Source: Selenomonas sp. F0473
Lineage (GTDB): Bacteria > Bacillota > Negativicutes > Selenomonadales > Selenomonadaceae
Assembly: GCF_000315545.1 (NCBI RefSeq)
Contig: NZ_JH992902.1
Span: 221,280 to 285,279 of the forward strand
Direction: 5' to 3'
DNA length: 64,000 nt
The notes under the pieces were generated by a model. That model was not told the origin of the DNA, did no database searches, and worked only from the letters and a program-made list of their open reading frames with translations. The first letter of the stretch is position 1; the number at the start of each line of letters is the position of its first letter. The translations under genes were made by a program, and so were the position numbers. Positions 8,147-39,786 of the stretch are shown here, piece by piece.

Positions 8147-8629
8147 ATGAAAAAATATCATGTGAAGCGCGTCCTGCTGACAGGCCTTGCCGCCGCACTC
8201 TTCTTTGGAGGGGACGGACATGTGCAGGCAGCGCCGTCGCCGCTCGTCGAATACGCGAGCGTACGGGATGCGTGGGCGGTGGTCGGACTGCCCGTCTATA
8301 CGCCGACCCTCCTGCCCGTCGGCTATGTGCAGAAGGACATTATCGTCATCGACAATCGGCTCGCCGAGATATTCTACCGCAATGAGGCCGGCAAGGAGAT
8401 TCTCTTCCGGATGGCGAAGGGGGATTCCGACATCAGCGGCAACAACAATGTCTACGAGGTGAATAAAGTCGTCCAGGTCGGCCGCCAGTACATCCGCGTC
8501 AAAGGAACGGAGAAACGCGTCAGCCTCGCCCTCTGGGCACGCAATGGATATACCTTTTCCATCTCGTTTGAGGAACCCGTCTCCGTCGAGGCGGTACAGG
8601 CCATCGTCGATACGATTCCGTGGCAATAA
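8147..8629 (+). CDS. Exported hypothetical protein (DUF4367-like)
   Basis: A 160-residue product with a clear signal peptide (basic start, then VLLTGLAAALFFGG, and cleavage likely after a VQA-A site near residue 29). The mature part contains LPVYTPTLLPVGYVQKDI and alternating strands resembling DUF4367-type domains found in anti-sigma and sporulation proteins. Function is not known; it is likely periplasmic. An ATG at 8135 overlaps the recN stop, but TGAGGA at 8136-8141 fits ATG 8147 better. It precedes a strong tRNA promoter, so it probably ends the recN transcript. Confidence 0.6.
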   Translation: MKKYHVKRVLLTGLAAALFFGGDGHVQAAPSPLVEYASVRDAWAVVGLPVYTPTLLPVGYVQKDIIVIDNRLAEIFYRNEAGKEILFRMAKGDSDISGNNNVYEVNKVVQVGRQYIRVKGTEKRVSLALWARNGYTFSISFEEPVSVEAVQAIVDTIPWQ

Positions 8630-8632
8630 GAC

Positions 8633-8662
8633 TTGACATGCCGCGCATGCCTGCACTATAAT
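8633..8662 (+). promoter_or_regulatory. Consensus sigma-70 promoter of the tRNA-Lys gene
   Basis: A perfect TTGACA (8633-8638) and a perfect TATAAT (8657-8662) are separated by 18 nt. Transcription would begin near 8669, about a dozen bases before the mature tRNA. Confidence 0.88.
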
Positions 8663-8681
8663 AGCCCTGCGTGTAAGCCAA

Positions 8682-8757
<76 letters not shown>

Positions 8758-8789
8758 TGTATGGTATCCGCCGCGGCGGTTTTAGAGAG

Positions 8790-8818
8790 AAGCAGGTTGG
8801 TATCGCCAACCTGCTTTT
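8790..8818 (+). terminator. Terminator of the tRNA-Lys transcript
   Basis: A perfect 11-bp inverted repeat AAGCAGGTTGG (8790-8800) and CCAACCTGCTT (8806-8816) with a 5-nt loop and TTTT at the 3' side. It lies 32 nt after the tRNA and before surE. Confidence 0.85.
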
Positions 8819-8850
8819 CGTATATTGTGATCTTGTTTGGAGGGACCTTT

Positions 8851-9609
8851 GTGAAGATTTTGATCCTCAACGACGACGGCGTGGCGGCGGAGGGCCTGCG
8901 GACGCTTGCGCGCAGCCTTTCCGCGCGGCACCGTGTGACAGTTGCCGCGCCGATGCACCAGCAGAGCGGCACGTCGCATGCGCTTACGATCGGAAGTGCG
9001 ATTGAGGTGCGTGCGGACGAGACGTTTGATCCGGCGCATGACATAGAGGCATGGGCCATCGATGGAACGCCCGCCGACTGCGCCAAGCTCTATCTCGACG
9101 CGGTTGCGGAGGAACAGCCGGACGTCGTGCTCTCGGGGATCAATCACGGAGCGAATCTGGGGACGGATGTGATCTATTCGGGGACAGTCGGCGCCGCGTT
9201 CGAGGGGATCTTTCACGGGATTCCGTCGTTTGCGCTTTCCCTGCCCGAGGGAAGCGCTATCTCCTTTGCGGAGGCGGCGGCATATTTCGAGCCGTTTATG
9301 GAGAAAATCTTAACGGCGTACGATCAGCCGTTCCTGCTTAATATCAACTTCCCGCAGCGGTTAGCGGACGATACGCCGCAATTCATGTTCTGCCGACAGG
9401 GCGGCCGCGACTACGTCAATGCTTTCGAACGCATCGAGGAGAACGGGCGCGTTCATTATAAGGTCGCGGGAGAGATATCCGATACGGACAAAGGGGAAGG
9501 AACGGACATCCATACGGTGGAGCACGGGTATATCGCGGTGACGCCGCTCGGTGTGGATATGACGGATCATTCGCAGCTGACATGCTTTGACAATGAAATA
9601 TGGAAATAA
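8851..9609 (+). CDS. surE: 5'-nucleotidase SurE
   Basis: The 252-residue product starts with KILILNDDGV, whose paired aspartates bind the divalent metal of SurE phosphatases, and continues with APMHQQSGTSHALT and VVLSGINHGANLGTDVIYSG. SurE dephosphorylates nucleoside monophosphates in the cytoplasm. GTG 8851 is preceded by GGAGGG at 8839-8844. The frame is open upstream through the tRNA terminator, which is not coding. A terminator follows the gene. Confidence 0.94.
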   Translation: MKILILNDDGVAAEGLRTLARSLSARHRVTVAAPMHQQSGTSHALTIGSAIEVRADETFDPAHDIEAWAIDGTPADCAKLYLDAVAEEQPDVVLSGINHGANLGTDVIYSGTVGAAFEGIFHGIPSFALSLPEGSAISFAEAAAYFEPFMEKILTAYDQPFLLNINFPQRLADDTPQFMFCRQGGRDYVNAFERIEENGRVHYKVAGEISDTDKGEGTDIHTVEHGYIAVTPLGVDMTDHSQLTCFDNEIWK

Positions 9610-9642
9610 ATATCTTAGATATGGCTTGTTGATAATTACTAT

Positions 9643-9678
9643 AAAGAGCAGAGTTTGTGTCTTCTGCTCTTTTTTTTT
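9643..9678 (+). terminator. Rho-independent terminator after surE
   Basis: AAAGAGCAGA (9643-9652) pairs with TCTGCTCTTT (9663-9672) around a 10-nt loop and runs into nine or so T residues. A TATAAT at 9693-9698 follows, without a convincing -35, and could start the tetrapyrrole operon. Confidence 0.88.
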
Positions 9679-9743
9679 GCCGACTTTTGCGGTATAATAT
9701 GTGAATATGAACATCATTCATATTTTATATGGGAGGGAGCGTC

Positions 9744-10385
9744 TTGCTGTATCCGCTGAATATTGATCTAACGGGGCGGCGCATCGTTGTCGTCGGCGGC
9801 GGAACGGTGGCGGAGCGCAAGGTACGAGGGATTCTTGCGGCGGATGCGGGACCTTTCATATCGATGATTGCGCCGGAGGCGACGGCGGGGCTGCGCGTCC
9901 TCGCGGAGGCGGGGCGTATCGTTTGGCAATGTGAGAGATATGCGCACGGGATGCTGACGGGCGCGTTTCTCGTCTATGCCGCGACTGATGCGCCTGCGGT
10001 CAACGCCGCGGTCGCCGCAGAGGCGGAGGAAATCGGCGCGCTTGTCAACGTGATCGACGATGCGGCGCGTTCGGATTTTCAAGTGCCGGCGACACTGCGG
10101 CGCGGCGATCTTTTGCTGACCGCCTCAACGGGCGGCGGCAGTCCTGCGCTCGCGCGGGCGATACGGATGGAGCTTGAGCAATTCTATCCGCCTTCTTTTG
10201 AGATATGGATGGAACGTGTCGCCGTACTGCGTGCGGAGATGCGGAAGGCACTTCCGACGAGCAGGGCGCGCACAGAATTTTGGCGCGTTGCGTTGGGGGC
10301 CGATATTTTGTCGATGGTTCGAGACGGAGAGTTGGAGAAAGCGGAGGCTGAGTTACGACATGCGGCTCTTGACATTAGGGCTTAA
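9744..10385 (+). CDS. Precorrin-2 dehydrogenase/sirohydrochlorin ferrochelatase-type protein (Met8/CysG N-terminal)
   Basis: A 213-residue protein with an N-terminal Rossmann fold (IVVVGGGTVAERKVRGIL) and the family phrase NVIDDAARSDFQVPATLRRGDLLLTASTGG. It corresponds to the Met8/CysG-B unit that oxidises precorrin-2 to sirohydrochlorin with NAD and may insert iron to give siroheme. TTG 9744 is chosen because GGGAGG at 9731-9736 sits 7 nt upstream; ATG 9729 lies before that site. It heads the operon and overlaps hemA by 26 nt, a usual arrangement in Firmicutes. Confidence 0.9.
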   Translation: MLYPLNIDLTGRRIVVVGGGTVAERKVRGILAADAGPFISMIAPEATAGLRVLAEAGRIVWQCERYAHGMLTGAFLVYAATDAPAVNAAVAAEAEEIGALVNVIDDAARSDFQVPATLRRGDLLLTASTGGGSPALARAIRMELEQFYPPSFEIWMERVAVLRAEMRKALPTSRARTEFWRVALGADILSMVRDGELEKAEAELRHAALDIRA

Positions 10386-11679
10386 TCATAGAACGGCGCC
10401 TGTAGAGGTGCGCGAGCGCGTTTCGTTCTCGCGCGAAGATCTGCGCTCGGGACTTGTGAATTTGGGAGAGTACGACGGGCTGAACGGTCTGGTTGTGCTC
10501 TCTACCTGCAATCGGACGGAGTTCTATGCCGCCGTGGAGGATCATACGCGCGGCGCCGAGGCGCTGCGGCAGTTCCTGAGCGATTTGACGCAGGGCGGGG
10601 AGAGTCTGGACGAATATCTATATACCTATACGGACGAGGCCGCGGTGACGCATCTTTTCCGCGTGGCGTCGAGTCTCGATTCTCTCGTCCTAGGCGAAGG
10701 GCAGATTCTCTCGCAGGTCAAAGAGGCCTACGCCGTCGCGCGCGAGGCGGGGGCGACGAGTACGGTGCTCAATCTCCTCTTTCATCGGGCGATTGCGACG
10801 GGAAAGCGTGTGCGTACGGAGACACGCATCGCATACCGCTCCGTATCGGTCAGTTACACGGCGGTGGAGCTGGCGGCATCATCGCTCGGAGGGCTCGGCG
10901 GGTGTAGCGCGCTGATTTTCGGCGCGGGCAAGATGGCGGAGCTGACGGCGGAGCATCTGCGCGCACATGGGATTGAGACGATTTATGTGGCAAATCGCCA
11001 CCTTGACCGTGCCGCGCGGCTTGCCGAGCGCATCGGGGGCACGGCGATTCCCTTTGACCGCGCGATGGAATGTGCCGTCGGCGTCGATGTTATCGTCACT
11101 TCGACCGGAGCGCCGCATTATGTCGTCAAGGCATGGGAGGCGCGCCGTCTGATGGCGCGCCGGCATGGGAAGAAAATCTTCTTCATCGATATTGCGGTGC
11201 CGCGCGATGTGGATCCTGATGTGACGAGCATCAAGGGTGTGGAGCTCTACAATATCGATGCGCTCGAGGCTGTGGTCGACGAGCACCTGAGCGAGCGTCA
11301 AACGGAGGCCGTCAAGGCGGAGCGCATTGTGCGGGAGGAGGTCGCGTCTCTTCTGGAGCGGTTTAAATATCTTTCCTTTCAGCCGCTGATGGCGCTCCTA
11401 TCGAGGCGCTGTGAGCGGATTCGAGAGCGCGAAATCAAGCGTGTGAGCGCCAAACTTCCGGATCTTTCGGAGGAAGAGGAGCGGCAGGTCGATCATATGA
11501 GCCGTATGATTGTGCGCAAGATCCTGCGGATCCCGATGATGAAACTGCGGGCATCGGCGGGTACCGCAGACGAGGCGTTTTACATTGCGGCGATGAGGTC
11601 GCTCTTTAAACTGGATGCGATAGGAGAGACGGGGACAAGTGAGCAGCGGCACAATCACTATCGGTACGCGGGCAAGTAA
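10360..11679 (+). CDS. hemA: Glutamyl-tRNA reductase
   Basis: A 439-residue enzyme with GLNHRTAPVEVRERV at the start and LSTCNRTEFYA, whose Cys50 is the catalytic nucleophile. VLGEGQILSQVKEAY, a NADPH-binding domain with IFGAGKMAELTA, and a C-terminal helical dimerisation region follow. It reduces glutamyl-tRNA to glutamate-1-semialdehyde, the first committed step of tetrapyrrole synthesis by the C5 pathway; hemL downstream does the next step. The start lies inside the end of the Met8-type gene, and its end overlaps hemC by 41 nt. Confidence 0.96.
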   Translation: MRLLTLGLNHRTAPVEVRERVSFSREDLRSGLVNLGEYDGLNGLVVLSTCNRTEFYAAVEDHTRGAEALRQFLSDLTQGGESLDEYLYTYTDEAAVTHLFRVASSLDSLVLGEGQILSQVKEAYAVAREAGATSTVLNLLFHRAIATGKRVRTETRIAYRSVSVSYTAVELAASSLGGLGGCSALIFGAGKMAELTAEHLRAHGIETIYVANRHLDRAARLAERIGGTAIPFDRAMECAVGVDVIVTSTGAPHYVVKAWEARRLMARRHGKKIFFIDIAVPRDVDPDVTSIKGVELYNIDALEAVVDEHLSERQTEAVKAERIVREEVASLLERFKYLSFQPLMALLSRRCERIREREIKRVSAKLPDLSEEEERQVDHMSRMIVRKILRIPMMKLRASAGTADEAFYIAAMRSLFKLDAIGETGTSEQRHNHYRYAGK

Positions 11680-12574
11680 GCTCGCGCTGTGGCAGGCGGA
11701 GCACATTGCGGGAGAGCTGCGCCGACATCATCCCTCTCTTGCGGTCGTGTTGAAAAAAATGACGACGAAGGGGGATAAAATCCTCGACGCGCCGCTCGCG
11801 AAAATCGGCGGCAAGGGACTCTTTACAAAGGAACTTGAACAGGCGATGCTTGCGGGCGAGATCGATCTTGCGGTGCACAGCCTGAAGGATATGCCGACGG
11901 AGCTGCCCGCGGGGCTCGTCATCGGCGCGATTACGGAGCGGCTTGATGCCGGCGACGCCTTTGTCAGCAATCGCTACGGTGCGATAGAGGAGCTCCCCGC
12001 GGGTGCGGCGGTAGGGACGTCGAGTCTGCGCCGACGCGCGCAGATCCTCGCCGTGCGCCCCGACCTGACGCTGCGCGACCTCCGTGGGAACGTGAATACG
12101 CGTCTTGAAAAGCTCGATGCGGGCGAATTTGACGCCGTCGTGCTTGCCGCGGCGGGACTGCGGCGGCTGGGGCTCGGCGACCGCATCCGCTCGGTGCTGC
12201 CGCGCGCGATGATGCTGCCCGCCGTGGGTCAGGGGGCGCTTGCCATTGAGTGCCGCGCGGGCGATACGGAGATTCTCGCCGCCATCGACTTTCTGCGCGA
12301 TGCGAATATGACGGCGGCAGCCGCAGCGGAGCGCGCCTTCCTCAGCCGCGTCGAGGGGGGCTGTCAGATTCCCGTCGGCGTTTACGCCGAGATGGGAGAG
12401 GGAAATATGCTGCATGTGGATGCCATGATTGCCTCCGTGGACGGGATGCGCGTCTGCCGTTCCCGCGCGTCGGGGCGGGCGGAACAGGCGGCTCAGATTG
12501 GCGTCTCTCTTGCAGAGGAACTGCTCGATGCGGGCGGACGTGAGATTTTGAAAGAGATAGGAATTATCGTATGA
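11639..12574 (+). CDS. hemC: Hydroxymethylbilane synthase (porphobilinogen deaminase)
   Basis: A 311-residue enzyme beginning IGTRASKLALWQAE, with GKGLFTKELEQAML, VHSLKDMPTELPAGL and GTSSLRRRAQI. Cys242 in EGGCQIPVG is the attachment site for the dipyrromethane cofactor. It condenses four porphobilinogens into hydroxymethylbilane. The GTG start lies 41 nt inside hemA, and the ATGA at its end overlaps the cobA-hemD start, so expression is coupled in both directions. Confidence 0.96.
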   Translation: MSSGTITIGTRASKLALWQAEHIAGELRRHHPSLAVVLKKMTTKGDKILDAPLAKIGGKGLFTKELEQAMLAGEIDLAVHSLKDMPTELPAGLVIGAITERLDAGDAFVSNRYGAIEELPAGAAVGTSSLRRRAQILAVRPDLTLRDLRGNVNTRLEKLDAGEFDAVVLAAAGLRRLGLGDRIRSVLPRAMMLPAVGQGALAIECRAGDTEILAAIDFLRDANMTAAAAAERAFLSRVEGGCQIPVGVYAEMGEGNMLHVDAMIASVDGMRVCRSRASGRAEQAAQIGVSLAEELLDAGGREILKEIGIIV

Positions 12575-14094
12575 ACGGAACAGTTTTCCTTGTCGGCGCG
12601 GGCCCCGGGGATCCACGTCTTTTGACCGTCGGCGCGATGGCGTGTATGAAACGCGCGGATGTCGTCGTCTACGACCACCTCGCCGATGAGGGAATTCTTT
12701 CTTATGCGTCCGCGGACGCAGAGCGCATTTATGTCGGAAAGCAGTCCTGCAAGCACACGATGCGCCAAGAGGATATCAATGTGCTTCTCGCCGAGAAAGC
12801 GGCCGAGGGAAAGACGGTCGTCCGCCTCAAGGGCGGCGACCCGTTTGTCTTTGGCCGCGGGGGCGAAGAGGCGCTCCTCCTGATGGAGCGCGGCATTCCC
12901 TTTGAGGTATTGCCCGGCGTGACCTCGGCGGTCAGTGTGCCCGCCTATGCGGGCATCCCTGTCACGCACCGCGGCGTCGCAGTGTCGTTTGCGGTCGTTA
13001 CGGGGCACGAGGACCCGAGGAAGGCGCAGTCCAGCATTCGCTGGCAGCACCTGGCAACGGGGGTGGATACGCTCGTCTTTCTCATGGGCGTTGCCAATAT
13101 CCCAGAGATTACCAAAAACCTGATTGAGAACGGACGTCCCGCCGAGACGCCCGCGGCCATCATTCGCTGGGGGACGCATCCGGAGCAGGAGACCTACGTC
13201 ACGACGGTGGGCGACGCGGCGGAGACACTGCGCCGCGAGGGCATCCGCCCGCCCGCGATCTTCATTGTGGGCAATGTGGTGAAATTGCGTGAGCACTTGC
13301 GCTGGTTTGACCGTCCCGCCACGCGCCCGCTCTTCGGCAAGCGGATTCTCGTGACGCGCGCGCGCGCGCAGGCGTCGGCGCTCACGGAGAAACTCACGGC
13401 GCTCGGCGCCGCCTGCATCGAGGCGCCCGTCATCCGTATCGCGCCGCCTGCGGACGGTTATGCGGCGCTCGATGGAGCGATTGCGGAGCTCAATGCGTAT
13501 CACTGGCTGATTTTTACGAGCGTCAACGGTGTGGAGCATTTCTTCGCGCGTCTGCGCGCGGCGGGGAAGGATACGCGCGCGCTCGGCTATGCCAAAGTCG
13601 CCGCAATCGGCTCCGCGACGGCTGAGGCGCTGCGCTCGTTCGGCATCACCGCCGACCTCATTCCCGAGGAGTTTCGTGCCGAGGCTGTGGCTGAGGCGCT
13701 GCGCCCCATCCTGCCGCCGCGTGCGCGCATTCTCCTGCCGCGCGCGCAGGAGGCGCGGGACGTGCTCCCCGATACGCTGCGCGCGCATGGCGCGACGGTG
13801 GATGTAGTGGCCGTCTATGAGACCGTTCCGGAGACGGAGAGCGGCGCGGAACTGGCCGAACGCATGATGCGCGGAGATATCGATATCGTGACGTTTACAA
13901 GTTCCTCCACGGTGAAGAACCTCGTCAAGCTGCTCGGCAACATCACGCCGCTGCAGCAGACGAAGATTGCCTGTATCGGACCCGTGACGGCGGACACCGC
14001 GCGTTCGTTTGCGCTTGCGCCCGATATTGTGGCGGAGGAATATACGATTGACGGCCTCGTATCGTGTATAAAGGAGTATGTGCAATGCATATGA
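12571..14094 (+). CDS. cobA-hemD: Uroporphyrinogen-III C-methyltransferase/uroporphyrinogen-III synthase fusion
   Basis: A 507-residue two-domain protein. Residues 1 to about 250 are a SUMT (CobA) domain with VGAGPGDPRLLTVGA, VVRLKGGDPFVFGRGGEEA and LPGVTSAVSVPAYAGIPVTH. From about residue 252 a HemD domain starts with GKRILVTRARAQASAL and ends with TFTSSSTVKNLV and IACIGPVTA. One polypeptide thus cyclises hydroxymethylbilane to uroporphyrinogen III and methylates it to precorrin-2, feeding siroheme or cobalamin. The fusion is common in Firmicutes. It overlaps hemC by 4 nt and hemB by 10 nt. Confidence 0.95.
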   Translation: MNGTVFLVGAGPGDPRLLTVGAMACMKRADVVVYDHLADEGILSYASADAERIYVGKQSCKHTMRQEDINVLLAEKAAEGKTVVRLKGGDPFVFGRGGEEALLLMERGIPFEVLPGVTSAVSVPAYAGIPVTHRGVAVSFAVVTGHEDPRKAQSSIRWQHLATGVDTLVFLMGVANIPEITKNLIENGRPAETPAAIIRWGTHPEQETYVTTVGDAAETLRREGIRPPAIFIVGNVVKLREHLRWFDRPATRPLFGKRILVTRARAQASALTEKLTALGAACIEAPVIRIAPPADGYAALDGAIAELNAYHWLIFTSVNGVEHFFARLRAAGKDTRALGYAKVAAIGSATAEALRSFGITADLIPEEFRAEAVAEALRPILPPRARILLPRAQEARDVLPDTLRAHGATVDVVAVYETVPETESGAELAERMMRGDIDIVTFTSSSTVKNLVKLLGNITPLQQTKIACIGPVTADTARSFALAPDIVAEEYTIDGLVSCIKEYVQCI

Positions 14095-15056
14095 TTCAGC
14101 GGCCGCGGCGCCTGCGCATATCTGCCGGCATGCGTGACCTCGTGCGTGAGACGGAGCTCTCACCGCGCGATTTCGTCTACCCGATTTTTGTCGTTCCGGG
14201 GGAGCATATCAAGGAAGAGATTCCGAGCATGCCGAACTGTTTCCACTACTCTGTGGACAATGTGGCGGCGCTCGCACGTGAAGTCGCCGCACGCGGGATT
14301 CCCGCCGTGGAGGTGTTCGGGCTGCCCGCCTATAAGGACGAGATTGGGTCGGGCGCATGGGATGTGACAAGCCCCGTACAGCGGGCGATTACGGCAATCA
14401 AGGAAGCGGTTCCGGAACTTCTCGTTGTGGGCGATGTCTGCCTCTGCCAGTACACGAGCCACGGGCACTGCGGCGAACTGAACGGCCAATATGTGGACAA
14501 TGACGCGACGCTGCCGCATCTCGTTCAAACGGCGGTCAGTCAGGCGCGGGCGGGAGCGGATATCGTGGCGCCGTCCGATATGATGGACGGGCGCGTTGCG
14601 GCCATCCGTGCGGGGCTCGATGCCGAGGGCTTTATCAATACGAGCATCATGAGTTATGCGGTGAAATATGCCTCCGGCTACTACGGCCCCTTCCGCGACG
14701 CCGTCGACAGCGCGCCGTCCTTCGGCGACCGCAAACAGTACCAGATGGATACGGCGAATGTGCGCGAGGCGCTGAAAGAGGCCCGGCTCGACTGCGACGA
14801 GGGGGCGGACATTATCATGGTAAAGCCCGCGCTCGCCTATCTCGATGTTGTGCGCAGGGTCTACGAGGCAACAGAGCGTCCGATTGCGGTCTATAACGTC
14901 AGCGGCGAGTATGCGATGGTGAAAGCCGCCGCCGCAAACGGCTGGATCGACGAGCGGAAGATTGTGCTGGAAACGCTGACGAGTATGAAACGTGCGGGAG
15001 CGAAGATCATCATCACCTACCATGCGCTCGACGCGGCGGCATGGCTCAATGCGTGA
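14085..15056 (+). CDS. hemB: Delta-aminolevulinic acid dehydratase (porphobilinogen synthase)
   Basis: A 323-residue enzyme with the Cys-rich metal segment CLCQYTSHGHCG, the first active-site lysine in MSYAVKYASGYYGPF and Lys247 in DIIMVKPALAYLDVV, which forms the Schiff base with substrate. It condenses two aminolevulinates to porphobilinogen. The Cys-rich segment points to a zinc-type enzyme. AAGGAG at 14071-14076 is 8 nt before ATG 14085, which is preferred over an upstream frame extension. Confidence 0.96.
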   Translation: MHMIQRPRRLRISAGMRDLVRETELSPRDFVYPIFVVPGEHIKEEIPSMPNCFHYSVDNVAALAREVAARGIPAVEVFGLPAYKDEIGSGAWDVTSPVQRAITAIKEAVPELLVVGDVCLCQYTSHGHCGELNGQYVDNDATLPHLVQTAVSQARAGADIVAPSDMMDGRVAAIRAGLDAEGFINTSIMSYAVKYASGYYGPFRDAVDSAPSFGDRKQYQMDTANVREALKEARLDCDEGADIIMVKPALAYLDVVRRVYEATERPIAVYNVSGEYAMVKAAAANGWIDERKIVLETLTSMKRAGAKIIITYHALDAAAWLNA

Positions 15057-15070
15057 GGAGGAAGCCGACG

Positions 15071-16390
15071 ATGCGGAACACGAACCGGTCCAAAGCGGCC
15101 TTTGACGAGGCGAAACGATATATGCCGGGCGGGGTGAACAGCCCCGTCCGCTCCTTTGCGAATGTGGGCGGGAATCCGCTCTTTATCGCGCGCGCGGAAG
15201 GAGATAAAATCTACGACATCGATGGGAACGAGTACATCGACTACGTCGGTTCGTGGGGGCCGATGATTGTCGGACACGCACACCCGCAGGTGATTCGAGC
15301 GCTGCAGGAGGCGGCGGCACGCGGCACGAGCTACGGTGCGCCGACCCTCGCCGAAACGGAACTGGCGCAGCTTGTGCAGACCGTCTATCCGTCGATTGAA
15401 GTCATCCGCATGGTAAACTCGGGAACCGAGGCAACGATGAGCGCCCTGCGTCTCGCACGCGGTTATACGGAGCGGAACAAAATCGTCAAGTTCGTCGGCT
15501 GCTATCACGGACACAGCGACAGCCTGCTTGTGAGCGCCGGCTCCGGTATGGCGACCTTCGGTGTGCCGAGTTCGCCGGGCGTGACGCCCGGTACGGCGGC
15601 AGACACAATCGCCGTACCTTACAACGATAAAGAGGCGATTCGCTCCGTCATGGAGCGCGAGGGCGATACGATTGCCGCCGTTATCGTCGAGCCCGTGGCG
15701 GGCAACATGGGACTCGTTCTCCCGCGGCAGGGCTATCTCCCTCTCCTGCGGGCACTGACGGAGCGCTGCGGTGCGCTGCTCATCTTCGATGAGGTCATGT
15801 GCGGGTTCCGCGCGTCGCTCGGCGGCGCACAGGCGGCGTACGGCATCCGTCCCGATCTCACCTGTCTCGGCAAGATCATCGGCGGCGGACTTCCCGTCGC
15901 GGCCTACGGCGGGCGCCGCGACATCATGGAGCGCATCTCGCCCGCAGGTCCCGTCTATCAGGCGGGCACGCTTTCGGGCAACCCGCTCGCCATGACGGCG
16001 GGCATCGAGACGCTCAAGATCATCACGGCGGAGCCGGAGGATGGGGCGGCAGACTACAGCAGAGAGCTGACGCTCAAGACAAAGAACCTTCTGCTCGGCT
16101 GGCAGCGCATCGCCAAAGAATACGACGTTCCTATTTGCGCGCATCAGGCGGGATCGATGTTCGGCATCTTCTTTACGGATCGTGAGGTCTATAACTACGA
16201 GGATGCCGTCGCGGCCGACCAAGAGGCCTTCCGTATCTGGTTCGAGACGATGCTGGACGAGGGGATTTACCTCGCGCCGTCCCAGTTCGAGACGATCTTC
16301 ATGTCGGGGGCGCATACGGACGCGGATATCGACCGTACAATTGCGGCCGCGGAGAAGGGGTTTGCAGCAGTCAAAGGAGCACGCGCTTAA
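15071..16390 (+). CDS. hemL: Glutamate-1-semialdehyde 2,1-aminomutase
   Basis: A 439-residue class-III PLP aminotransferase with MPGGVNSPVRSF, MVNSGTEATMSALRLARG, IFDEVMCGFR and the PLP lysine (Lys268) in LGKIIGGGLPVAAYGG. It converts glutamate-1-semialdehyde to 5-aminolevulinate and completes the C5 route together with HemA. ATG 15071 is used because GAGGAGG at 15055-15061 lies 9 nt upstream; an earlier in-frame ATG at 15041 is inside hemB. A terminator closes the operon just after its stop. Confidence 0.96.
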   Translation: MRNTNRSKAAFDEAKRYMPGGVNSPVRSFANVGGNPLFIARAEGDKIYDIDGNEYIDYVGSWGPMIVGHAHPQVIRALQEAAARGTSYGAPTLAETELAQLVQTVYPSIEVIRMVNSGTEATMSALRLARGYTERNKIVKFVGCYHGHSDSLLVSAGSGMATFGVPSSPGVTPGTAADTIAVPYNDKEAIRSVMEREGDTIAAVIVEPVAGNMGLVLPRQGYLPLLRALTERCGALLIFDEVMCGFRASLGGAQAAYGIRPDLTCLGKIIGGGLPVAAYGGRRDIMERISPAGPVYQAGTLSGNPLAMTAGIETLKIITAEPEDGAADYSRELTLKTKNLLLGWQRIAKEYDVPICAHQAGSMFGIFFTDREVYNYEDAVAADQEAFRIWFETMLDEGIYLAPSQFETIFMSGAHTDADIDRTIAAAEKGFAAVKGARA

Positions 16391-33533: not shown

Positions 33534-34907
33534 ATGAAGACGGACCTACCGGTACAACAGGGGAAAAATTACGAAATTCATATAGAACGCCTTGGAACTT
33601 CCGGCGAGGGTGTCGGCAGGTATGAGAATTTCACCGTATTTGTGCCGAATGCGCTGGCGGGCGAATGTGTTTCTGCGCGCATCGAAGAAGTAAAAAAGAC
33701 CTATGCGCGCGGGCGTATGACGAAGATTCATACACAGAGCGCCGACCGCGTACAGCCGCGCTGCGAGATATATATCGACTGCGGCGGCTGTCAGCTCCAG
33801 CACCTTTCCTATGAGGCACAGCTCGCGGCAAAACGCCGGCAGGTCGTCGACGCCATGACGCATATCGGAAAACTGCCGCATGTGCCTGTCAGGGAAACCT
33901 TGGGCGCCGTGTCTCCGTGGAACTACCGCAACAAAATGCAGTTCCCCGTCGGCATTCATCAGGGGCGTATTGTTGTCGGATGTTTTGCGCAGGGGAGCCA
34001 TCGGATTATCGACACCGACGACTGCCATATCCAGCGGGAAGGCAATAATGAACTCGCAAATGCCGTGCGCGACATCGTTGCGCAGCTGCGTATTCCCATT
34101 TACAACGAGGACACGCATCGCGGCGTTTTGCGGCATATCGTGGGGCGCGTAGGCAAAGACGACGAACTCATGGCGGTCATCGTGACCACTGTAAAGGAGC
34201 TGCCGCGCAGAAAAGAATTCATCCGGATGCTGCGTGCCCGTCTGCCGCGCCTTGTGAGCATCCAGCAGAATATCCAAACCTACCGCAACAACGTCATTAT
34301 GGGGCGAGATACCGTGCTGCTATGGGGGAAACCGACCATCCGAGATACCCTCGGAAAACTCAGCTTTCACATCTCACCGCGCTCCTTCTTCCAAGTCAAT
34401 ACCGCACAGGCGGAGGTCCTCTATGAGCAGGCTCTGCAATACGCCGACCTCCACGGGACGGAGACCGCTATCGACGCCTACTGCGGCACGGGGACGATTA
34501 CGCTCTTTCTCGCACAAAAGGCGCGGAAAGTCTACGGCATCGAAATCGTCCGTCCCGCCATCCTCGACGCGCAGAAAAATGCGCGTGACAACGGCATCAA
34601 AAATGCCGAATTCATCGTCGGCGATGCAACCAAGGTTATGCCTTCTCTCTATAAACAAGGCGTCCGCCCCGACGTCGTTGTCGTCGACCCGCCGCGTGCG
34701 GGCTGCACGCCGACCGTCCTCAAAACCTTCGCCGACATGAAACCCCGCCGTATCGTCTACGTCTCATGCAATCCCGCGACCCTCGCGCGCGACCTTGCCA
34801 TCATGAAAGACCTCGGCTATGCCGCGCAGGAGATACAACCCGTCGATTTATTTCCGCAGACTTCGCATGTGGAGACGGTAGCATTGATAACAAGGGCAAA
34901 TTGGTGA
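33534..34907 (+). CDS. rlmD: 23S rRNA (uracil-5-)-methyltransferase RlmD/RumA family
   Basis: A 457-residue enzyme. An N-terminal TRAM domain (about 5-62) is followed by Fe-S cysteines in PRCEIYIDCGGCQLQHL and a later Cys in DTDDCHIQ. Then come the SAM motif DAYCGTGTITLFLAQ, VVDPPRAGCTPT and the catalytic Cys412 in VSCNPATLARDL. It methylates C5 of a uridine in 23S rRNA (U1939 in E. coli numbering; Gram-positive homologues may act on more than one site). It starts 7 nt after the gph stop. The A+T-rich island begins right after it. Confidence 0.93.
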   Translation: MKTDLPVQQGKNYEIHIERLGTSGEGVGRYENFTVFVPNALAGECVSARIEEVKKTYARGRMTKIHTQSADRVQPRCEIYIDCGGCQLQHLSYEAQLAAKRRQVVDAMTHIGKLPHVPVRETLGAVSPWNYRNKMQFPVGIHQGRIVVGCFAQGSHRIIDTDDCHIQREGNNELANAVRDIVAQLRIPIYNEDTHRGVLRHIVGRVGKDDELMAVIVTTVKELPRRKEFIRMLRARLPRLVSIQQNIQTYRNNVIMGRDTVLLWGKPTIRDTLGKLSFHISPRSFFQVNTAQAEVLYEQALQYADLHGTETAIDAYCGTGTITLFLAQKARKVYGIEIVRPAILDAQKNARDNGIKNAEFIVGDATKVMPSLYKQGVRPDVVVVDPPRAGCTPTVLKTFADMKPRRIVYVSCNPATLARDLAIMKDLGYAAQEIQPVDLFPQTSHVETVALITRANW

Positions 34908-35379
34908 GTGGATAGGCGTTTATTGACATCAAGGGATTCTGATAAAAGAATGTATTTTGTGGCGTACATTGGAATCCTTTTTGTGCATTTTGGCATTCAT
35001 AGTAACAACTCAAGGCGAGACTATAGGATAGATATTTGCGTGTTGTGACTATAGCGTGGATGGCAGGAAAGTTCAGGGAGAGATCTAGGATAGGTTGGAC
35101 AGCATGTGCCTCGCGTGTAAAAGAAAATGCCCGCAGGTGGGGGGCTATTGAAAATTGACAAAATGGGCAAAGTGTATGAAAATATACGAAGAGAGCGAAT
35201 GGCAAGAATCCATGAAAATGCTTTCGGACGTACTCATTGTCCGATATTCCAGCAGAACTACCTGAATCGGGCACTAGACCTTGGTGCCATGAAAAAACTA
35301 GTAACACTATTATAAAATCTCATGGCAAAGTAAAGGGATTATAGCTGTAAAAAAAATGAACTTCAATGTGGAGTGAGGC
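34908..35379 (+). other. Gene-poor left flank of the accessory island
   Basis: About 470 nt of lower G+C without a convincing gene. Short frames look like decayed coding DNA, for example 35127-35315 (62 residues, with RRERMARIHENAFGRTH and LNRALDLGAMKKLVTLL) and a stretch near 35050-35155 without a clean start. I recognise none of them. TTGACA at 34923-34928 has only a weak AAGAAT -10 at 34945. No tRNA, integrase or obvious direct repeat was found. Confidence 0.45.
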
Positions 35380-36525
35380 GTGAACGTGGAACGCAGAAAT
35401 AATAATGCAGTAATAAGCACAGTAAGTCCTCATACAATAAAGAAATTTGAGCTAGTAGAAGCATATATAAAATCATGGGCACAAAAATTGATAAATTTTC
35501 GTGATTGCAATAGATTGGCATTTATTGACTGTATGTGCAATAGTGGAATTTACCGTGACGATGATAGAAAAGAAGTTAAAGGAACTCCTTTACGTGTGGC
35601 AAAAATTCTTTCGGAGGTTGCCCACGATCATCTAGATAAGCAACTATATCTTTACCTGAATGATAAATCACAAAGGAAAATTAACGAACTTAGAAAGCAT
35701 CTTCCTCAGGAGGAGGAGAATTTTCACATTATAACGAGTGCTGTGGATAGGGACGATTTTTTGTATGAAGTGGGGGATCAATTATGCGATTGTCAGGATC
35801 TGCATTTCTTCTTATTTTATGATCCTTATGATGCAAATATTAACTGGGATCCTCTGGTTCCTTTTTTTAGGGGATGGGGGGAAGTTTTGATTAATCACAT
35901 GGTTTCAGATACAATACGAGGTGTTCCACAAGTAAAACAAGAATCGGCAAAGGAGAAGTATGAGAGCACCTATCTTACCGCCATTGGAAATTTACTTTCT
36001 TGTGGAACGGATAAGGCAGCATATGAACACATTGTTGAGGAAATTATACGGAAACTAAATGGTAAAGGTAAATATTTCGTAGGGGCATTTCCGTTTTACA
36101 ATTCGAAGAATACACAGATGTATAGCTTGGTTCATTGTACTAATAATATTGTAGGATTCAAATTATATAAGGAGACTGCGTGGAAAATATTCGGGGGAAA
36201 ATCCTCTACTCAAAATACGCACGAAAATCCTGATCAGACAGTACTTTTTGACGATGTTGGATATGATACTAAAAACTGCTTTTATGTATCGGACATTGCC
36301 AAGTATCTACAGAAAAATTATGAAGGTAAGTCGGATGTGCTGCTTAGCAAGTTGTGGAAATCCTTGGATTATCATCCTGTTTTCCCTTCGGACGGATATC
36401 GGGAAGAGATAAAGAAATACCTGAAAAGTGTGTACGGAGCGCAATTTTGTAAAAAAGTGAATCCGCTGACCGGCAAGAAAGAAACGGTAGTATCTTTTAG
36501 GAAAGGAAACTTATGTAATGAATAA
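35380..36525 (+). CDS. tcmP: Three-Cys-motif partner protein TcmP-like
   Basis: A 381-residue protein that begins with SPHTIKKFELVEAYIKSW and AFIDCMCNSGIYRDD, then FFLFYDPYDANINWD and VLINHMVSDTIRG. This matches TcmP proteins, which are encoded beside three-Cys-motif (radical-SAM-like) proteins. The IDCMCNSGIY and FYDPYDA segments sit like motifs I and IV of a Rossmann methyltransferase, so methyl transfer or nucleotide binding is a fair inference. GTG 35380 has GGAG at 35370-35373; GTG 35386 is also possible. Its end overlaps the radical-SAM gene by 8 nt. The DNA is clearly more A+T-rich than its neighbours, a sign of transfer. Biological role unknown. Confidence 0.8.
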   Translation: MNVERRNNNAVISTVSPHTIKKFELVEAYIKSWAQKLINFRDCNRLAFIDCMCNSGIYRDDDRKEVKGTPLRVAKILSEVAHDHLDKQLYLYLNDKSQRKINELRKHLPQEEENFHIITSAVDRDDFLYEVGDQLCDCQDLHFFLFYDPYDANINWDPLVPFFRGWGEVLINHMVSDTIRGVPQVKQESAKEKYESTYLTAIGNLLSCGTDKAAYEHIVEEIIRKLNGKGKYFVGAFPFYNSKNTQMYSLVHCTNNIVGFKLYKETAWKIFGGKSSTQNTHENPDQTVLFDDVGYDTKNCFYVSDIAKYLQKNYEGKSDVLLSKLWKSLDYHPVFPSDGYREEIKKYLKSVYGAQFCKKVNPLTGKKETVVSFRKGNLCNE

Positions 36526-37318
36526 AGTGGATGGCTATATACAAAGGACATCCATGCTTTATAAGACCGGTGTTGAGTATGGCGACTATACCATGAATTT
36601 TGTACAAGGTTGTTCTCATGGATGTAAATACCCGTGTTATGCCTTTTTACAAAAAAAACGTTTTGGGCAGATAAAAGACTATGAGGATTGGTGCAAACCG
36701 AGGATTGTCTCTAATACGCTTGCTTTGTTGGATAAAGAGATTCCGAGACTAAAGGATAAAATCCTATTCGTTCAACTATGCTTTACGACAGATCCATTTA
36801 TGTATGGATATCAAGAAATCGAAGATATGGCAATGGCATCGATCAAAAAACTGAATGATGCCAGAATAAAATGTACGGTACTGACGAAGGGAATCCTCCC
36901 CTTTTCGTTGACTGAATTTTCCATGGAGAACGAATATGGCATCACACTTGTTTCGTTGGATGAGAACTATCGGTGTCAGATGGAGCCGGGAGCGGCGCCC
37001 TATCAGGAACGCCTAGATGCGCTCAGAGCGCTGCACGATGCCGGATGCAGGACGTGGGTGAGTATTGAACCGTATCCGACACCGAATATCATCCGGCAAG
37101 ACATAACGAATATTCTTGAGGCGGTTAGCTTTACGGATCGGGTGATCTTCGGAAGGACAAACTATAGTAAGGCGGTTTCCGCATATCGGGAACACCGCAG
37201 TTTTTATAATACATGTGCCAAAGAAGTTATTCGGTTCTGTAAGGATCGCGATATCGCATATCATATAAAATCCGGTACAATCACCGAGGAATCTGATACC
37301 GAATGTGCAGAGGAGTGA
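36518..37318 (+). CDS. Radical-SAM-like three-Cys-motif protein (Gp37/Gp68, DUF5131-like)
   Basis: A 266-residue protein with three cysteines, Cys32, Cys36 and Cys40, in QGCSHGCKYPCYAF: a CX3CX3C spacing, one residue longer than the usual radical-SAM CX3CX2C, but followed by the usual Tyr. Later segments ILFVQLCFTTDPF, KCTVLTKGI, LVSLDE and TWVSIEPYPTPNI resemble the spore photoproduct lyase/DUF5131 barrel. It likely binds a 4Fe-4S cluster and SAM. Eight-nt overlap with the TcmP-like gene shows they form one unit. The substrate is unknown; RNA, DNA or protein modification are all possible. A+T-rich and probably acquired. Confidence 0.8.
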   Translation: MNKVDGYIQRTSMLYKTGVEYGDYTMNFVQGCSHGCKYPCYAFLQKKRFGQIKDYEDWCKPRIVSNTLALLDKEIPRLKDKILFVQLCFTTDPFMYGYQEIEDMAMASIKKLNDARIKCTVLTKGILPFSLTEFSMENEYGITLVSLDENYRCQMEPGAAPYQERLDALRALHDAGCRTWVSIEPYPTPNIIRQDITNILEAVSFTDRVIFGRTNYSKAVSAYREHRSFYNTCAKEVIRFCKDRDIAYHIKSGTITEESDTECAEE

Positions 37319-37322
37319 CGAG

Positions 37323-37442
37323 ATGGCGGCGATTAACGATTTGATTGCGCAGGTAGAGGATGAGGTGCTGCGGGAGCCTCTGCGCGAAGAGGTTGATCAG
37401 CTTATTTACCATTGTTGTAAAGGGCTACAAGAGACTTTTTAA
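37323..37442 (+). pseudogene. Truncated N-terminus of an adenine-specific DNA methyltransferase (putative)
   Basis: A 39-codon frame starting MAAINDLIAQVEDEVLREPL and reading on to EEVDQLIYHCCKG before a stop. From memory, the first 25 residues resemble the conserved start of large type-III-like site-specific DNA methyltransferases, whose next segment (KKFGLVFEEHLPE-like) is missing here. GAGGAG lies 8 nt upstream. Its G+C is higher than in the genes on either side. I read it as the stub left after loss of a methyltransferase gene, but a genuine 39-residue peptide cannot be excluded. Confidence 0.45.
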
Positions 37443-37615
37443 AATCAGCATCATAGTGTGGCGAAGCTGACATTAAGATACCTCTTTTTACTGTCTGATT
37501 TCATTATGCTACTAAGATTTGTTTCGTGTCTATACATTAAAATAAAGTTGGCTATAAAATAAGCATGATGATTCAATGTAAATTCAAATTTGGGTAGAAA
37601 CGAGGAATATTAACG

Positions 37616-38137
37616 ATGATAGAATTCGGCAGCAAAAATGAAGAAGTAGGACGTTCTGCACCTTTCCTCATATCTACTGAAGAAGGAGAGGAAAACGAAA
37701 TTAAATTTGTTGTAGCCTTAGCTGCGGAAGGTGAGAAAGGGACAAATATTGATGATATGGGTATTCCTAAACTTGGCGCACTACTAAAAGATAGTGTACC
37801 GTTATATCCGAGTGAGAAAGTCGTCTACGAAATACTATTTGATGAATATCTCATTCACCAGACAAGAAATGAGTCTTTGACTCGTTGGGATGACTATGAA
37901 ATCAGACAAGGTAAGTATTTCATCCTGTTTGAAAAGTCAAGATTTCTTGATTATATGGATATTGTTGTAGAAAGAGTAATAGCAAAAGCATACTGGAAAA
38001 AAGGCTGGAAGCACTATGGCATATATTGTCAGAATCATATTATAGATATTATTTCTCCATCTATACCTGCAATTAGAAAAGTTCATCTCACTGCTGATAG
38101 AGTATGCAAGAATGTTAAGGGGAGTGCAGAAGATTAG
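37616..38137 (+). CDS. Hypothetical protein of the accessory island
   Basis: A 173-residue protein I do not recognise. It is soluble, with an acidic N-terminal third (STEEGEENEIKFVVALAAEG), a middle segment VVYEILFDEYLIHQTRNESL and a C-terminal half rich in aromatic and basic residues (AYWKKGWKHYGIYCQNHI). No signal peptide or membrane helix. GAGG near 37600 is about 12 nt before the ATG. It is A+T-rich like the TcmP pair but separated from it by the methyltransferase stub and about 170 nt, with a possible TATAAA at 37553. It could belong to the same system or be an independent insertion. Confidence 0.6.
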   Translation: MIEFGSKNEEVGRSAPFLISTEEGEENEIKFVVALAAEGEKGTNIDDMGIPKLGALLKDSVPLYPSEKVVYEILFDEYLIHQTRNESLTRWDDYEIRQGKYFILFEKSRFLDYMDIVVERVIAKAYWKKGWKHYGIYCQNHIIDIISPSIPAIRKVHLTADRVCKNVKGSAED

Positions 38138-38679
38138 AACCCGCCTAGAGATATTACTTAAAAATGTTGCGTAGACTAAAAAATGAGATTAAGAAATGGT
38201 TCAAGAGAAAATATATCTGTGTAGCACGTTCTTCAAAACTATATGCTAAAACGTTTCTTGGAGCGTGTTTCCATTTCGGAATACAAGAATAACTTTGTTT
38301 TCAAGGTGAATATATCTATGATAGTTTTTAAGTATTTTATCTCGGTATGAGTTTTTTTAATCACACTTGTCATATTTGTGTATTTATAGTATTAATGGAG
38401 ACTAGAAGTAATTCCTTTGATGTGCTAACAGAAACGAATGAGAAAATAGAAGAGCGATTGTTTAACTGACTATCTAAAGTTACTACCTAAGCAATATATA
38501 GTTCAGAAATCCAGATACTTTTACAGGATTAAGGATTGTTCTGCTATATTTAATTCTGTAAAATATAAGAAGTCGGAAACTTCATAAAAGATGGTGGATT
38601 CTTTTATGACAATATTCGTCGTGATTCATGGAAGATTCTTGGCGATATGCGGGGAATTCGATAAAAGGCGGGATAGCAA
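38138..38679 (+). other. Gene-poor right flank of the accessory island
   Basis: About 540 nt of strongly A+T-rich DNA with stops in all frames. The longest start-to-stop frame I found, 38164-38292 (42 residues), has no ribosome site or recognisable family. The segment ends at the transporter operon, where G+C returns to normal. No terminal repeats, tRNA or transposase remnant could be seen. A possible promoter for the transporter lies at 38536-38564. Confidence 0.5.
38536..38564 (+). promoter_or_regulatory. Possible promoter of the ABC transporter operon
   Basis: TTGTTC (38536-38541), 17-nt spacer and TAAAAT (38559-38564). In A+T-rich DNA such matches arise by chance, so support is modest. 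No Fur-box-like palindrome was seen nearby. Confidence 0.35.
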
Positions 38680-39786
38680 GTGAGTGTGGCGATACAGATT
38701 AAAGATGTAGTGAAGCGCTATGGGGAGCTGACGATTATTCCAGGGCTCTCGCAGGAGATTAAAAACGGCGAGTTTTTTACACTCCTTGGTCCTTCGGGCT
38801 GCGGGAAGACGACGCTCCTGCGGATGATCGCGGGATTCAACTCGATTGAGGGCGGCGCGATCCGGTTCAACGGCGAGACGATTAACGATTTGCCGGCACA
38901 TAAGCGAAATATCGGTATGGTTTTCCAAAGCTACGCGATTTTCCCGCATCTGACGGTACGCGAGAATGTCGAGTATGGTTTAAAACTCCGAAAAACTCCG
39001 AAAGATGAGATGAAGCGTCTCGTAGATGATATCCTTGACGCGGTGAAGATTACGGAGTATCAAGATCGACTCCCGGAGCGCCTGTCCGGCGGACAGCAGC
39101 AGCGCGTGGCGTTAGCGCGCGCGATTGTCATTCACCCGAGCGTACTCCTCATGGATGAGCCGCTTTCGAACCTTGATGCGAAGCTGCGTGTGGAGATGCG
39201 TGCCGCGATTCGGGAGGTGCAGCAGAAAGTCGGCATCACAACGATTTATGTGACGCATGATCAGGAGGAAGCGCTTTCAATTTCGGATCGCATCGCCGTT
39301 ATGGAGAAAGGCGTAATCCAGCAGACGGCAAAGCCCGAGACGCTCTATGCACGCCCCTATAACGCCTTTGTCTCGACGTTCATCGGACATTCGAATCTGT
39401 TTCGCGCGCGTGTTGACGGAGGGAAAAATATCATCCTTTCGGATGGGTATAATTTCCAAGTAGACGGTATTGAAGGTGCGGCGGACGGGCAGGAGGTTGT
39501 TCTCTCAGTTCGTCCGGAAGAGTTCTCTCTGCAGGAGGACGGCATGGAGTGCCGCATCACAGGAAAGGTATTCCTAGGAAAGTATGTAAACTATTGGCTG
39601 GAATTCCCTGAGGATATGATTTGTATGGGACAGCCGTCGATTGAATTCTCGCAGGACGTGGGGCATGCGGAGCGGATTCTCGAGGTAGGCGAAACAATTC
39701 GCCTGCGTCCGAATGCGGCGAAGGTCAACGTGTTTACTGCGGACGGCAGCCGCAACCTCTTGAAGGATGTGGTTCGCTATGAATAA
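38680..39786 (+). CDS. ABC transporter ATP-binding protein (iron/organophosphate/polyamine type)
   Basis: A 368-residue ATPase with Walker A GPSGCGKTTLLRMIAGF, the signature LSGGQQQRVALARAI, Walker B VLLMDEPLSNLDAKLR and the H-loop YVTHDQEEALS, then a C-terminal TOBE region. It belongs to the FbpC/PotA/AfuC group that drives import of ferric iron, sugar phosphates, sulphate or polyamines. GTG 38680 is used. Its end overlaps the permease gene by 8 nt; the binding protein gene is third in the operon. Confidence 0.92.
   Translation: MSVAIQIKDVVKRYGELTIIPGLSQEIKNGEFFTLLGPSGCGKTTLLRMIAGFNSIEGGAIRFNGETINDLPAHKRNIGMVFQSYAIFPHLTVRENVEYGLKLRKTPKDEMKRLVDDILDAVKITEYQDRLPERLSGGQQQRVALARAIVIHPSVLLMDEPLSNLDAKLRVEMRAAIREVQQKVGITTIYVTHDQEEALSISDRIAVMEKGVIQQTAKPETLYARPYNAFVSTFIGHSNLFRARVDGGKNIILSDGYNFQVDGIEGAADGQEVVLSVRPEEFSLQEDGMECRITGKVFLGKYVNYWLEFPEDMICMGQPSIEFSQDVGHAERILEVGETIRLRPNAAKVNVFTADGSRNLLKDVVRYE

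What the first reader, a model, noticed from the sequence alone, without database searches (positions are those of the whole stretch)
35380..38137. A+T-rich island with a TcmP-like/radical-SAM-like gene pair: candidate undescribed modification or defence system
Seen: two overlapping genes (8 nt), the first with methyltransferase-like segments and the second with a CX3CX3C three-Cys motif, then a methyltransferase-like stub and an orphan 173-residue gene. All lie in A+T-rich DNA between rlmD and a G+C-rich transporter operon. Known: TcmP proteins are named for association with three-Cys-motif proteins; I know of no experimentally established function. Inference: the pair is a mobile RNA/DNA-modifying or anti-phage unit.
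Basis: partly seen in the sequence, partly recalled or inferred. Interest (0 to 1): 0.75.

Follow-up and report, generated by a model that had tools for sequence, protein, structure and literature searches.

The report
Restriction-operon remnant with paired SAM enzymes
A foreign-looking stretch of this bacterial genome holds two intact partner genes for S-adenosylmethionine-using enzymes that, in many other bacteria and some phages, sit in front of DNA restriction-modification genes; here those restriction genes are gone except for a 27-codon stump, so the pair is probably a mobile, anti-phage-linked nucleic-acid-modifying unit of still unknown chemistry.

Summary
An A+T-rich island (GC 0.31-0.47 against 0.50-0.63 around it) between rlmD and a transporter operon carries a TcmP gene (TIGR04474, 103.7 bits, cut-off 53) overlapping by 8 nt a radical-SAM gene with CX3CX3C.

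The "methyltransferase-like stub" is the first 27 codons of a type III restriction Mod gene. In Mitsuokella multacida (same family, also downstream of rlmD) the order is HTH - TcmP - rSAM - Mod (broken into three ORFs) - Res. In 80 loci fetched by the rSAM alone, 76 have TcmP directly upstream, 80 have CX3CX3C, and 24 have this Mod family downstream; this Mod occurs nowhere else in those loci. The four genes diverge together (r 0.68-0.83). Other copies precede other restriction types, stand alone under purifying selection, or sit in phages, once near a phage SAM synthetase and terminase.

So the window holds a decayed mobile restriction operon whose SAM-enzyme pair survives. Best mechanism: a two-step SAM-dependent nucleic-acid (probably DNA) modification module; substrate unproven. 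Defence candidacy is already flagged (PADLOC PDC-M30/M41). I found no published description of the coupling to type III R-M. The 173-residue orphan is not shown to be related.

The parts
34891..38499 (.). Island relative to the nearest sequenced relative G024: DNA homology stops near the end of rlmD (window 34891) and resumes at 38499, upstream of the ABC transporter operon. G024 carries an unrelated SRA-domain-like gene in the same slot.
   Evidence: blastn of G024 (L038) intergenic DNA against the window; flanking proteins 83-97% identical; SAD_SRA weak match, E 1.8e-5, below gathering
35380..36525 (+). TcmP (TIGR04474), class I methyltransferase-like fold; D50, G56 (motif I region) and D148-P149-Y150 (motif IV position) conserved
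   Evidence: 103.7 bits, cut-off 53; A3 alignment of 58 TcmPs; AlphaFold2 model pLDDT 76; Foldseek to methyltransferases
36518..37318 (+). Radical-SAM protein with invariant CX3CX3C (C32, C36, C40); distant relative of the PA0069/Rv2578c/mobile-pair group
37323..37403 (+). Remnant (codons 1-27) of a type III restriction Mod (DNA N6/N4-methyltransferase) gene
   Evidence: tblastn against intact Mod genes, best 59% over 27 aa, E 3.6e-6; same position relative to rSAM as in intact operons
37404..37442 (+). Tail of the truncated Mod reading frame without Mod homology, ending at a stop
37616..38137 (+). Orphan 173-aa gene, no family; two weak relatives (26-29% identity) in 301 class genomes. In the same island, no evidence that it belongs to the pair.

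Best explanation
The window holds the surviving half of a mobile operon that in its full form reads HTH_26 regulator - TcmP (one or two copies) - CX3CX3C radical-SAM protein - type III Mod - type III Res. Here Mod is cut after codon 27, Res is gone, no regulator is found, and both SAM-type genes are intact. Proposed mechanism (inferred): TcmP and the radical-SAM protein act together as a two-step SAM-dependent nucleic-acid modification pair. The radical-SAM protein attacks or alkylates a base, and TcmP, a methyltransferase-like protein, methylates it or presents the substrate. The target is most likely DNA, so the pair adds or alters a mark that restriction enzymes read; this would suit both restriction operons and phages. 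Shown here: the gene order, its conservation, the decay in the window, and intactness of the pair. Inferred: that both proteins bind SAM and act jointly, that DNA is the substrate, and that the outcome is protection or defence. I put the anatomy (decayed TcmP-rSAM-Mod-Res operon) at about 0.9 and the DNA-modification mechanism at about 0.45.
For: Operon: M. multacida L029 carries HTH_26 8325-8543, TcmP 8561-9700, rSAM 9733-10497, Mod 10509-12623 in three ORFs, ResIII 12626-15514. Of 80 loci found with rSAM only, 76 have TcmP upstream and 24 have this Mod family downstream, gaps mostly 1-14 nt, 19 with Res next. All 24 Mod-family ORFs among 1,243 ORFs lie in the rSAM operon. Reverse test: 6 of 7 genomes of L048's family and 3 of 16 genomes of the window's class with this Mod have rSAM directly upstream. 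On the Mod tree the presence of the pair needs 2 changes against 11.1 for shuffled labels, 0 of 500 as low. Pairwise divergence of TcmP, rSAM, Mod and Res correlates at r 0.68-0.83, 0 of 999 permutations. Other restriction partners: HsdM-S-R, type IIG, type IV, GmrSD, HindIII-like, a nickase. Phage contig L182 has DNA methylase, SAM synthetase, HNH, TcmP, rSAM, terminase and portal genes in a row. The TcmP model matches methyltransferases; rSAM has the radical-SAM domain.
Against: Stand-alone pairs without any R-M gene exist and are under purifying selection (L035 vs L036 rSAM dN 0.18, dS 1.48), so coupling to restriction is not obligatory. In three genomes of one genus the pair sits at a fixed chromosomal site. 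TcmP lacks the full DPPY motif of amino-methyltransferases (DPY/DPF instead), so methylation of a base amino group is not implied. No solved structure is related by sequence to either protein. There is no substrate evidence. The 80 loci are the closest 80 of 200, so the Mod share is biased towards window-like copies and near-duplicates.
Confidence: 0.45

Rival explanations
1. TcmP-rSAM is a complete defence system of its own that clusters with restriction systems only because defence genes share islands; it acts on phage nucleic acid or shuts down the infected cell.
For: PADLOC lists related pairs as candidates PDC-M30 and PDC-M41, found by a guilt-by-embedding approach (PMC10855318). Neighbours include Thoeris ThsB-like, AIPR/AbiU-like, GmrSD, PDC-S53 and PDC-S11 genes. 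Stand-alone intact pairs exist. A TcmP is listed next to hna in Sinorhizobium (PMC12445080).
Against: Gaps of 1-14 nt to Mod, co-divergence and the clustered Mod tree are tighter than island clustering alone predicts. The pair beside a phage terminase is odd for a host defence gene, though phages do carry anti-competitor genes.
Confidence: 0.27
2. The pair modifies tRNA or rRNA, either for translation or to guard against RNA-cutting effectors.
For: Best fold matches of TcmP include RNA methyltransferases: RlmJ (TM 0.55 by target), TYW4, MnmM, METTL6. Radical-SAM enzymes and methyltransferases are both common in RNA modification (general knowledge).
Against: Fold matches are weak and generic for class I methyltransferases; no sequence link to RlmJ (hhalign probability 6%). 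Sparse, mobile distribution beside DNA restriction genes.
Confidence: 0.13
3. The pair repairs or reverses DNA damage, like spore photoproduct lyase.
For: The radical-SAM protein scores against PA0069/Rv2578c family models (46.8 and 44.7 bits), a group I recall as annotated 'DNA repair photolyase'; spore photoproduct lyase is among weaker fold matches.
Against: Scores are far below those families' cut-offs (360, 430). A repair enzyme does not obviously need a methyltransferase-like partner or restriction genes next to it.
Confidence: 0.07
4. In this genome the pair is in decay: the island is what deletion left, with no present function.
For: Mod and Res are lost and no regulator is found; nearest relatives lack the pair; the same slot in G024 has another short restriction-like gene.
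Against: Both ORFs are full length with all invariant residues kept; substitutions relative to G040 are mostly synonymous (rSAM pN 0.17, pS 0.84), although this cannot show selection since the loss of Mod-Res.
Confidence: 0.08

Closest known systems
TcmP, three-Cys-motif partner protein (TIGR04474)
   Same: TcmP scores above the curated cut-off and sits next to a three-Cys protein.
   Different: The window TcmP belongs to a divergent group (15-22% identity to the more canonical FFxxKxPWSxxKDELL-type members). Its partner is not a DUF5131 protein at cut-off.
DUF5131 / phage Gp37-Gp68 family (PF07505)
   Same: Weak similarity over residues 17-213 and a three-Cys motif.
   Different: 19.4 bits, below the 28.9 cut-off; spacing is CX3CX3C; the best Pfam family is Radical_SAM.
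Radical SAM PA0069 / Rv2578c / mobile pair A and B families (NF033668, NF038135, TIGR04470, TIGR04471)
   Same: Same superfamily region, E 2e-12 to 4e-5.
   Different: Far below each family's cut-off; extra residue in the cluster motif; partner is TcmP, not a second radical-SAM protein.
Type III restriction-modification (Mod-Res)
   Same: The intact operon carries N6_N4_Mtase (Mod) and ResIII (Res) genes.
   Different: Extra HTH_26, TcmP and rSAM genes in front; the window keeps only 27 codons of Mod.
PADLOC candidates PDC-M30 and PDC-M41
   Same: Window TcmP matches PDC-M30A (60.5 bits) and PDC-M41A (43.0); rSAM matches the B components weakly (17.0 and 18.3 bits).
   Different: The B components match only over residues 16-85; the listed components that matched do not include an R-M gene.

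Membership tests
TcmP (TIGR04474) | Score above the curated cut-off of 53 bits | tested here: met
   103.7 bits over residues 17-269
TcmP (TIGR04474) | Gene adjacent to a three-Cys-motif protein | tested here: met
   8-nt overlap with the CX3CX3C gene; 76 of 80 relatives keep the pair
Radical SAM superfamily (PF04055) | Score above gathering cut-off | tested here: met
   39.4 vs 29.5 bits
Radical SAM superfamily (PF04055) | Canonical CX3CX2C cluster motif | tested here: not met
   CX3CX3C in the window and 80 of 80 relatives; other spacings are known in the superfamily (general knowledge), so this bears on the canonical subgroup only
Radical SAM superfamily (PF04055) | [4Fe-4S] cluster and SAM cleavage | not testable with these tools
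   Needs biochemistry; the cluster region of the model is low confidence
DUF5131 (PF07505) | Score above gathering cut-off | tested here: not met
   19.4 vs 28.9 bits
Type III R-M system (window copy) | Mod gene with N6/N4 methylase domain | tested here: not met
   Only codons 1-27 remain in the window; complete in L047-L050, L069 and others
Type III R-M system (window copy) | Res gene with ResIII domain | tested here: not met
   No Res remnant found in 34801-38800; present next to Mod in 19 relatives
PDC-M30 / PDC-M41 (PADLOC) | Both components A and B matched | tested here: inconclusive
   A matched (60.5 and 43.0 bits), B weak (17.0 and 18.3 bits); no curated cut-off shown
RlmJ-type rRNA methyltransferase | Sequence-profile homology | tested here: not met
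   hhalign probability 6% with TcmP profile A3, aligned out of register
Anti-phage defence system | Reduces phage infection | not testable with these tools

The most novel reading that the evidence does not exclude
TcmP and the CX3CX3C radical-SAM protein install a base modification not yet described, on DNA, as a fixed part of a five-gene type III restriction system. Phages carry the same pair, in one case near their own SAM synthetase, to mark their genomes against restriction.
Probability: 0.22. Interest if true: 0.87.

Novelty: new variant of a known kind. Interest (0 to 1): 0.56.

Why it matters
The TcmP family has been named for its neighbour without a function that I could find. Showing that the pair is a conserved front end of a clade of type III restriction operons, also occurs before other restriction types, and rides on phages turns an anonymous pair into a testable one: measure nucleosides and restriction with and without the two genes. 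If it makes a new DNA mark, it would add a radical-SAM route to DNA modification in restriction biology. The window itself is a decayed copy, useful as an example in which the pair outlasts Mod and Res.

Tried and rejected
Scan of genome contigs with the TcmP protein alone: no relatives by pattern; the rSAM alignment worked. TcmP as an RlmJ relative by sequence: rejected by hhalign. Solved-structure searches by sequence: none. Stub against NCBIfam: none; identified instead by comparison with the M. multacida operon. Plasmid collection: none for either protein. Orphan gene: no family, only two weak relatives, not linked to the pair. HTH_26 regulator in the window: not found even at E 10. Target-site or terminal repeats at the island edges: only short chance-level repeats. 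Literature: no paper on the pair's function in the library searched; the term DUF5131 has no hit at all.

Full report
WHAT IS THERE. Between rlmD (33534-34907) and an ABC transporter operon starting at 38680 lies an A+T-rich stretch. It holds TcmP at 35380-36525 and a radical-SAM gene at 36518-37318, overlapping by 8 nt. TcmP passes the curated cut-off of TIGR04474 (103.7 vs 53 bits). The second protein passes PF04055 and fails DUF5131. Then come a 39-codon ORF (37323-37442) and an orphan gene (37616-38137).

ISLAND STATUS. The nearest relative, G024, has flanking proteins 83-97% identical, but its rlmD-transporter gap holds a different A+T-rich gene with weak SRA-domain similarity. DNA homology with the window stops near 34891 and resumes at 38499. 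Of 14 genus genomes only the window's has a TcmP relative; in the family it is 11 of 189. So the slot is variable and the pair was acquired or differentially lost. No integrase, tRNA or convincing terminal repeat marks the edges.

THE STUB EXPLAINED. In M. multacida, about 5 kb downstream of rlmD, the order is HTH_26 (8325-8543), TcmP, rSAM, a DNA methylase gene in three ORFs (N6_N4_Mtase), and a 962-aa ResIII protein, in the neighbourhood of transposase genes and a Fic gene. The window's 39-codon ORF starts 4 nt after the rSAM stop, and its first 27 codons match the start of Mod proteins of such operons (59% identity to L053, E 3.6e-6). No other Mod or Res remnant was found between 34801 and 38800. 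The window is therefore a TcmP-rSAM-Mod-Res operon truncated within Mod.

HOW GENERAL. A scan of one genome per species with the rSAM alignment gave 200 relatives, of which the closest 80 were kept, from Bacillota, Alphaproteobacteria, Verrucomicrobiota, Solidesulfovibrio, Coriobacteriia, Synergistaceae and others, at 65-76% identity (several are metagenome bins whose taxonomy may be wrong). The CX3CX3C motif is invariant in 80 of 80 (one scan pattern covered the first CX3C, the other did not). TcmP is within two genes upstream in 76 of 80; at least two of the exceptions (L059, L082) lie at contig ends. Mod of this family is downstream in 24, one of them (L083) weak, with Res next in 19. It goes mainly with the window-like TcmP group (19 of 36) and less with the canonical group (4 of 40); one more is the contig-end locus L082 with no TcmP in view. 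Among 63 loci with at least 3 kb downstream, 20 have Mod. Mod-family ORFs occur nowhere else in the 1,243 ORFs of these loci. Caveat: these are the closest 80 of 200, with near-duplicates.

RECIPROCAL TEST. Searching genomes with the Mod protein: in the window's class, 16 of 301 genomes have it, and three of these (L130, L131, L138/L147; 62-75% identity to the query) have rSAM and TcmP directly upstream, the rest none in view. In the query's own family, 6 of 7 have rSAM upstream. On a tree of 39 Mods the pair label needs 2 changes, against a mean of 11.1 for shuffles, none of 500 as low. Pairwise divergences of the four genes correlate (r 0.68-0.83, none of 999 permutations), about as strongly as Mod with Res (0.79). 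Shared host descent may contribute to this.

OTHER PARTNERS. Other copies precede HsdM-HsdS-HsdR type genes (L091, L099, L111, L123), Eco57I/type IIG-like genes (L061, L062, L177), a type IV enzyme (L109), a nickase (L058), GmrSD (L061, L165), HindIII-like endonucleases (L168, L172), and PDC-S53 (L125) and PDC-S11 (L077) candidates. Three loci (L068, L070, L071) precede histidine kinase and D-Ala ligase genes, so the company is not exclusively restriction. A small HTH_26 gene lies upstream in 22 of 68 genome loci and 11 of 21 viral loci with enough sequence.

MOBILITY. Twenty-two IMG/VR contigs carry the rSAM. L182 is a clear phage segment: ParB/DNA methylase, S-adenosylmethionine synthetase, HNH, TcmP, rSAM, terminase large subunit, portal. 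MT836112.1 (gut, unverified) has a tyrosine integrase, HTH, TcmP, rSAM, Mod and Res. L183 has a Thoeris ThsB-like TIR gene and serine recombinases. No plasmid record matched. Against mobility everywhere: in three genomes of genus g10 (L034, L036, L037) the pair sits beside the same symporter gene (93-98% identical), while the pair itself is 66-87% identical, so it is fixed there but changes faster.

THE PROTEINS. The TcmP model (pLDDT 76) is a class I methyltransferase-like fold; best solved matches are TYW4 and RlmJ (E 4e-6 to 5e-6, TM 0.55 for RlmJ by target). In 58 aligned TcmPs D50, G56, D148, P149 and R180 are invariant, and position 150 is Y or F. D148-P149-Y150 follows the fourth core strand, the place of motif IV, but lacks the second proline of amino-methyltransferases. 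RlmJ is not related by profile. The rSAM model is weaker (pLDDT 66, residues 1-65 below 50), and its barrel matches radical-SAM enzymes.

MECHANISM. Two proteins of SAM-using type, nearly always together, sit in front of DNA methylase and nuclease genes, and in one phage lie near a SAM synthetase and DNA methylase. The most economical reading is a joint SAM-dependent nucleic-acid modification, DNA more likely than RNA. Because intact stand-alone pairs are conserved (L035 vs L036 rSAM dN 0.18, dS 1.48), the pair must have a function without Mod-Res. Steps shown: gene order, linkage, decay, fold class. Steps inferred: SAM use by both, joint action, substrate, effect on restriction.

WHAT WAS KNOWN. 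TcmP is an NCBI family name. PADLOC lists related pairs as candidate defence systems, defined by guilt-by-embedding, and PDC-M30 was predicted in 32 P. aeruginosa strains of which 68.8% were phage resistant, a correlation only (PMC10855318). A TcmP gene (SMa2243) is listed next to hna (SMa2245) in a table of NolR-affected genes (PMC12445080), and TcmP occurs in Sinorhizobium prophages (PMC12429752). I found no description of the coupling to type III R-M, but the library lacks most subscription papers and bioRxiv.

Noticed in passing
L038:9777-10205 (-): In the nearest relative the same rlmD-transporter slot holds a 142-aa SRA-domain-like gene in A+T-rich DNA, possibly another restriction remnant; the slot may be a small cargo hotspot.
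   Followed up: partly
L182:1082-9946: Phage contig with ParB/DNA methylase, S-adenosylmethionine synthetase, HNH, TcmP, CX3CX3C rSAM, terminase and portal genes in a row.
   Followed up: partly
L153 (MT836112.1): Unverified gut 'phage' scaffold carrying tyrosine integrase, HTH_26, TcmP, rSAM, type III Mod and Res, then a SNF2 helicase with a Swt1-like HEPN domain: a complete mobile version of the operon.
   Followed up: partly
L058:4635-6614 (-), L174:2646-4580 (-): A large (about 645 aa) divergently transcribed protein with HExxH (IrrE/M78-like in L174, HTH_26-like in L058) often sits head-to-head with the HTH_26 regulator upstream of TcmP.
   Followed up: partly
L069:9034-9972 and similar in L057, L064, L072, L085, L086, L089, L090, L098, L113: A second, shorter TcmP-like gene (about 290 aa) lies between TcmP and rSAM, mostly in Mod-bearing operons.
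   Followed up: no
L068, L070, L071: Here the pair precedes histidine kinase and D-Ala-D-Ala ligase genes (van-like order), not restriction genes.
   Followed up: no
window 37616-38137: Orphan 173-aa gene with only two weak relatives (26-29%) in 301 class genomes.
   Followed up: partly
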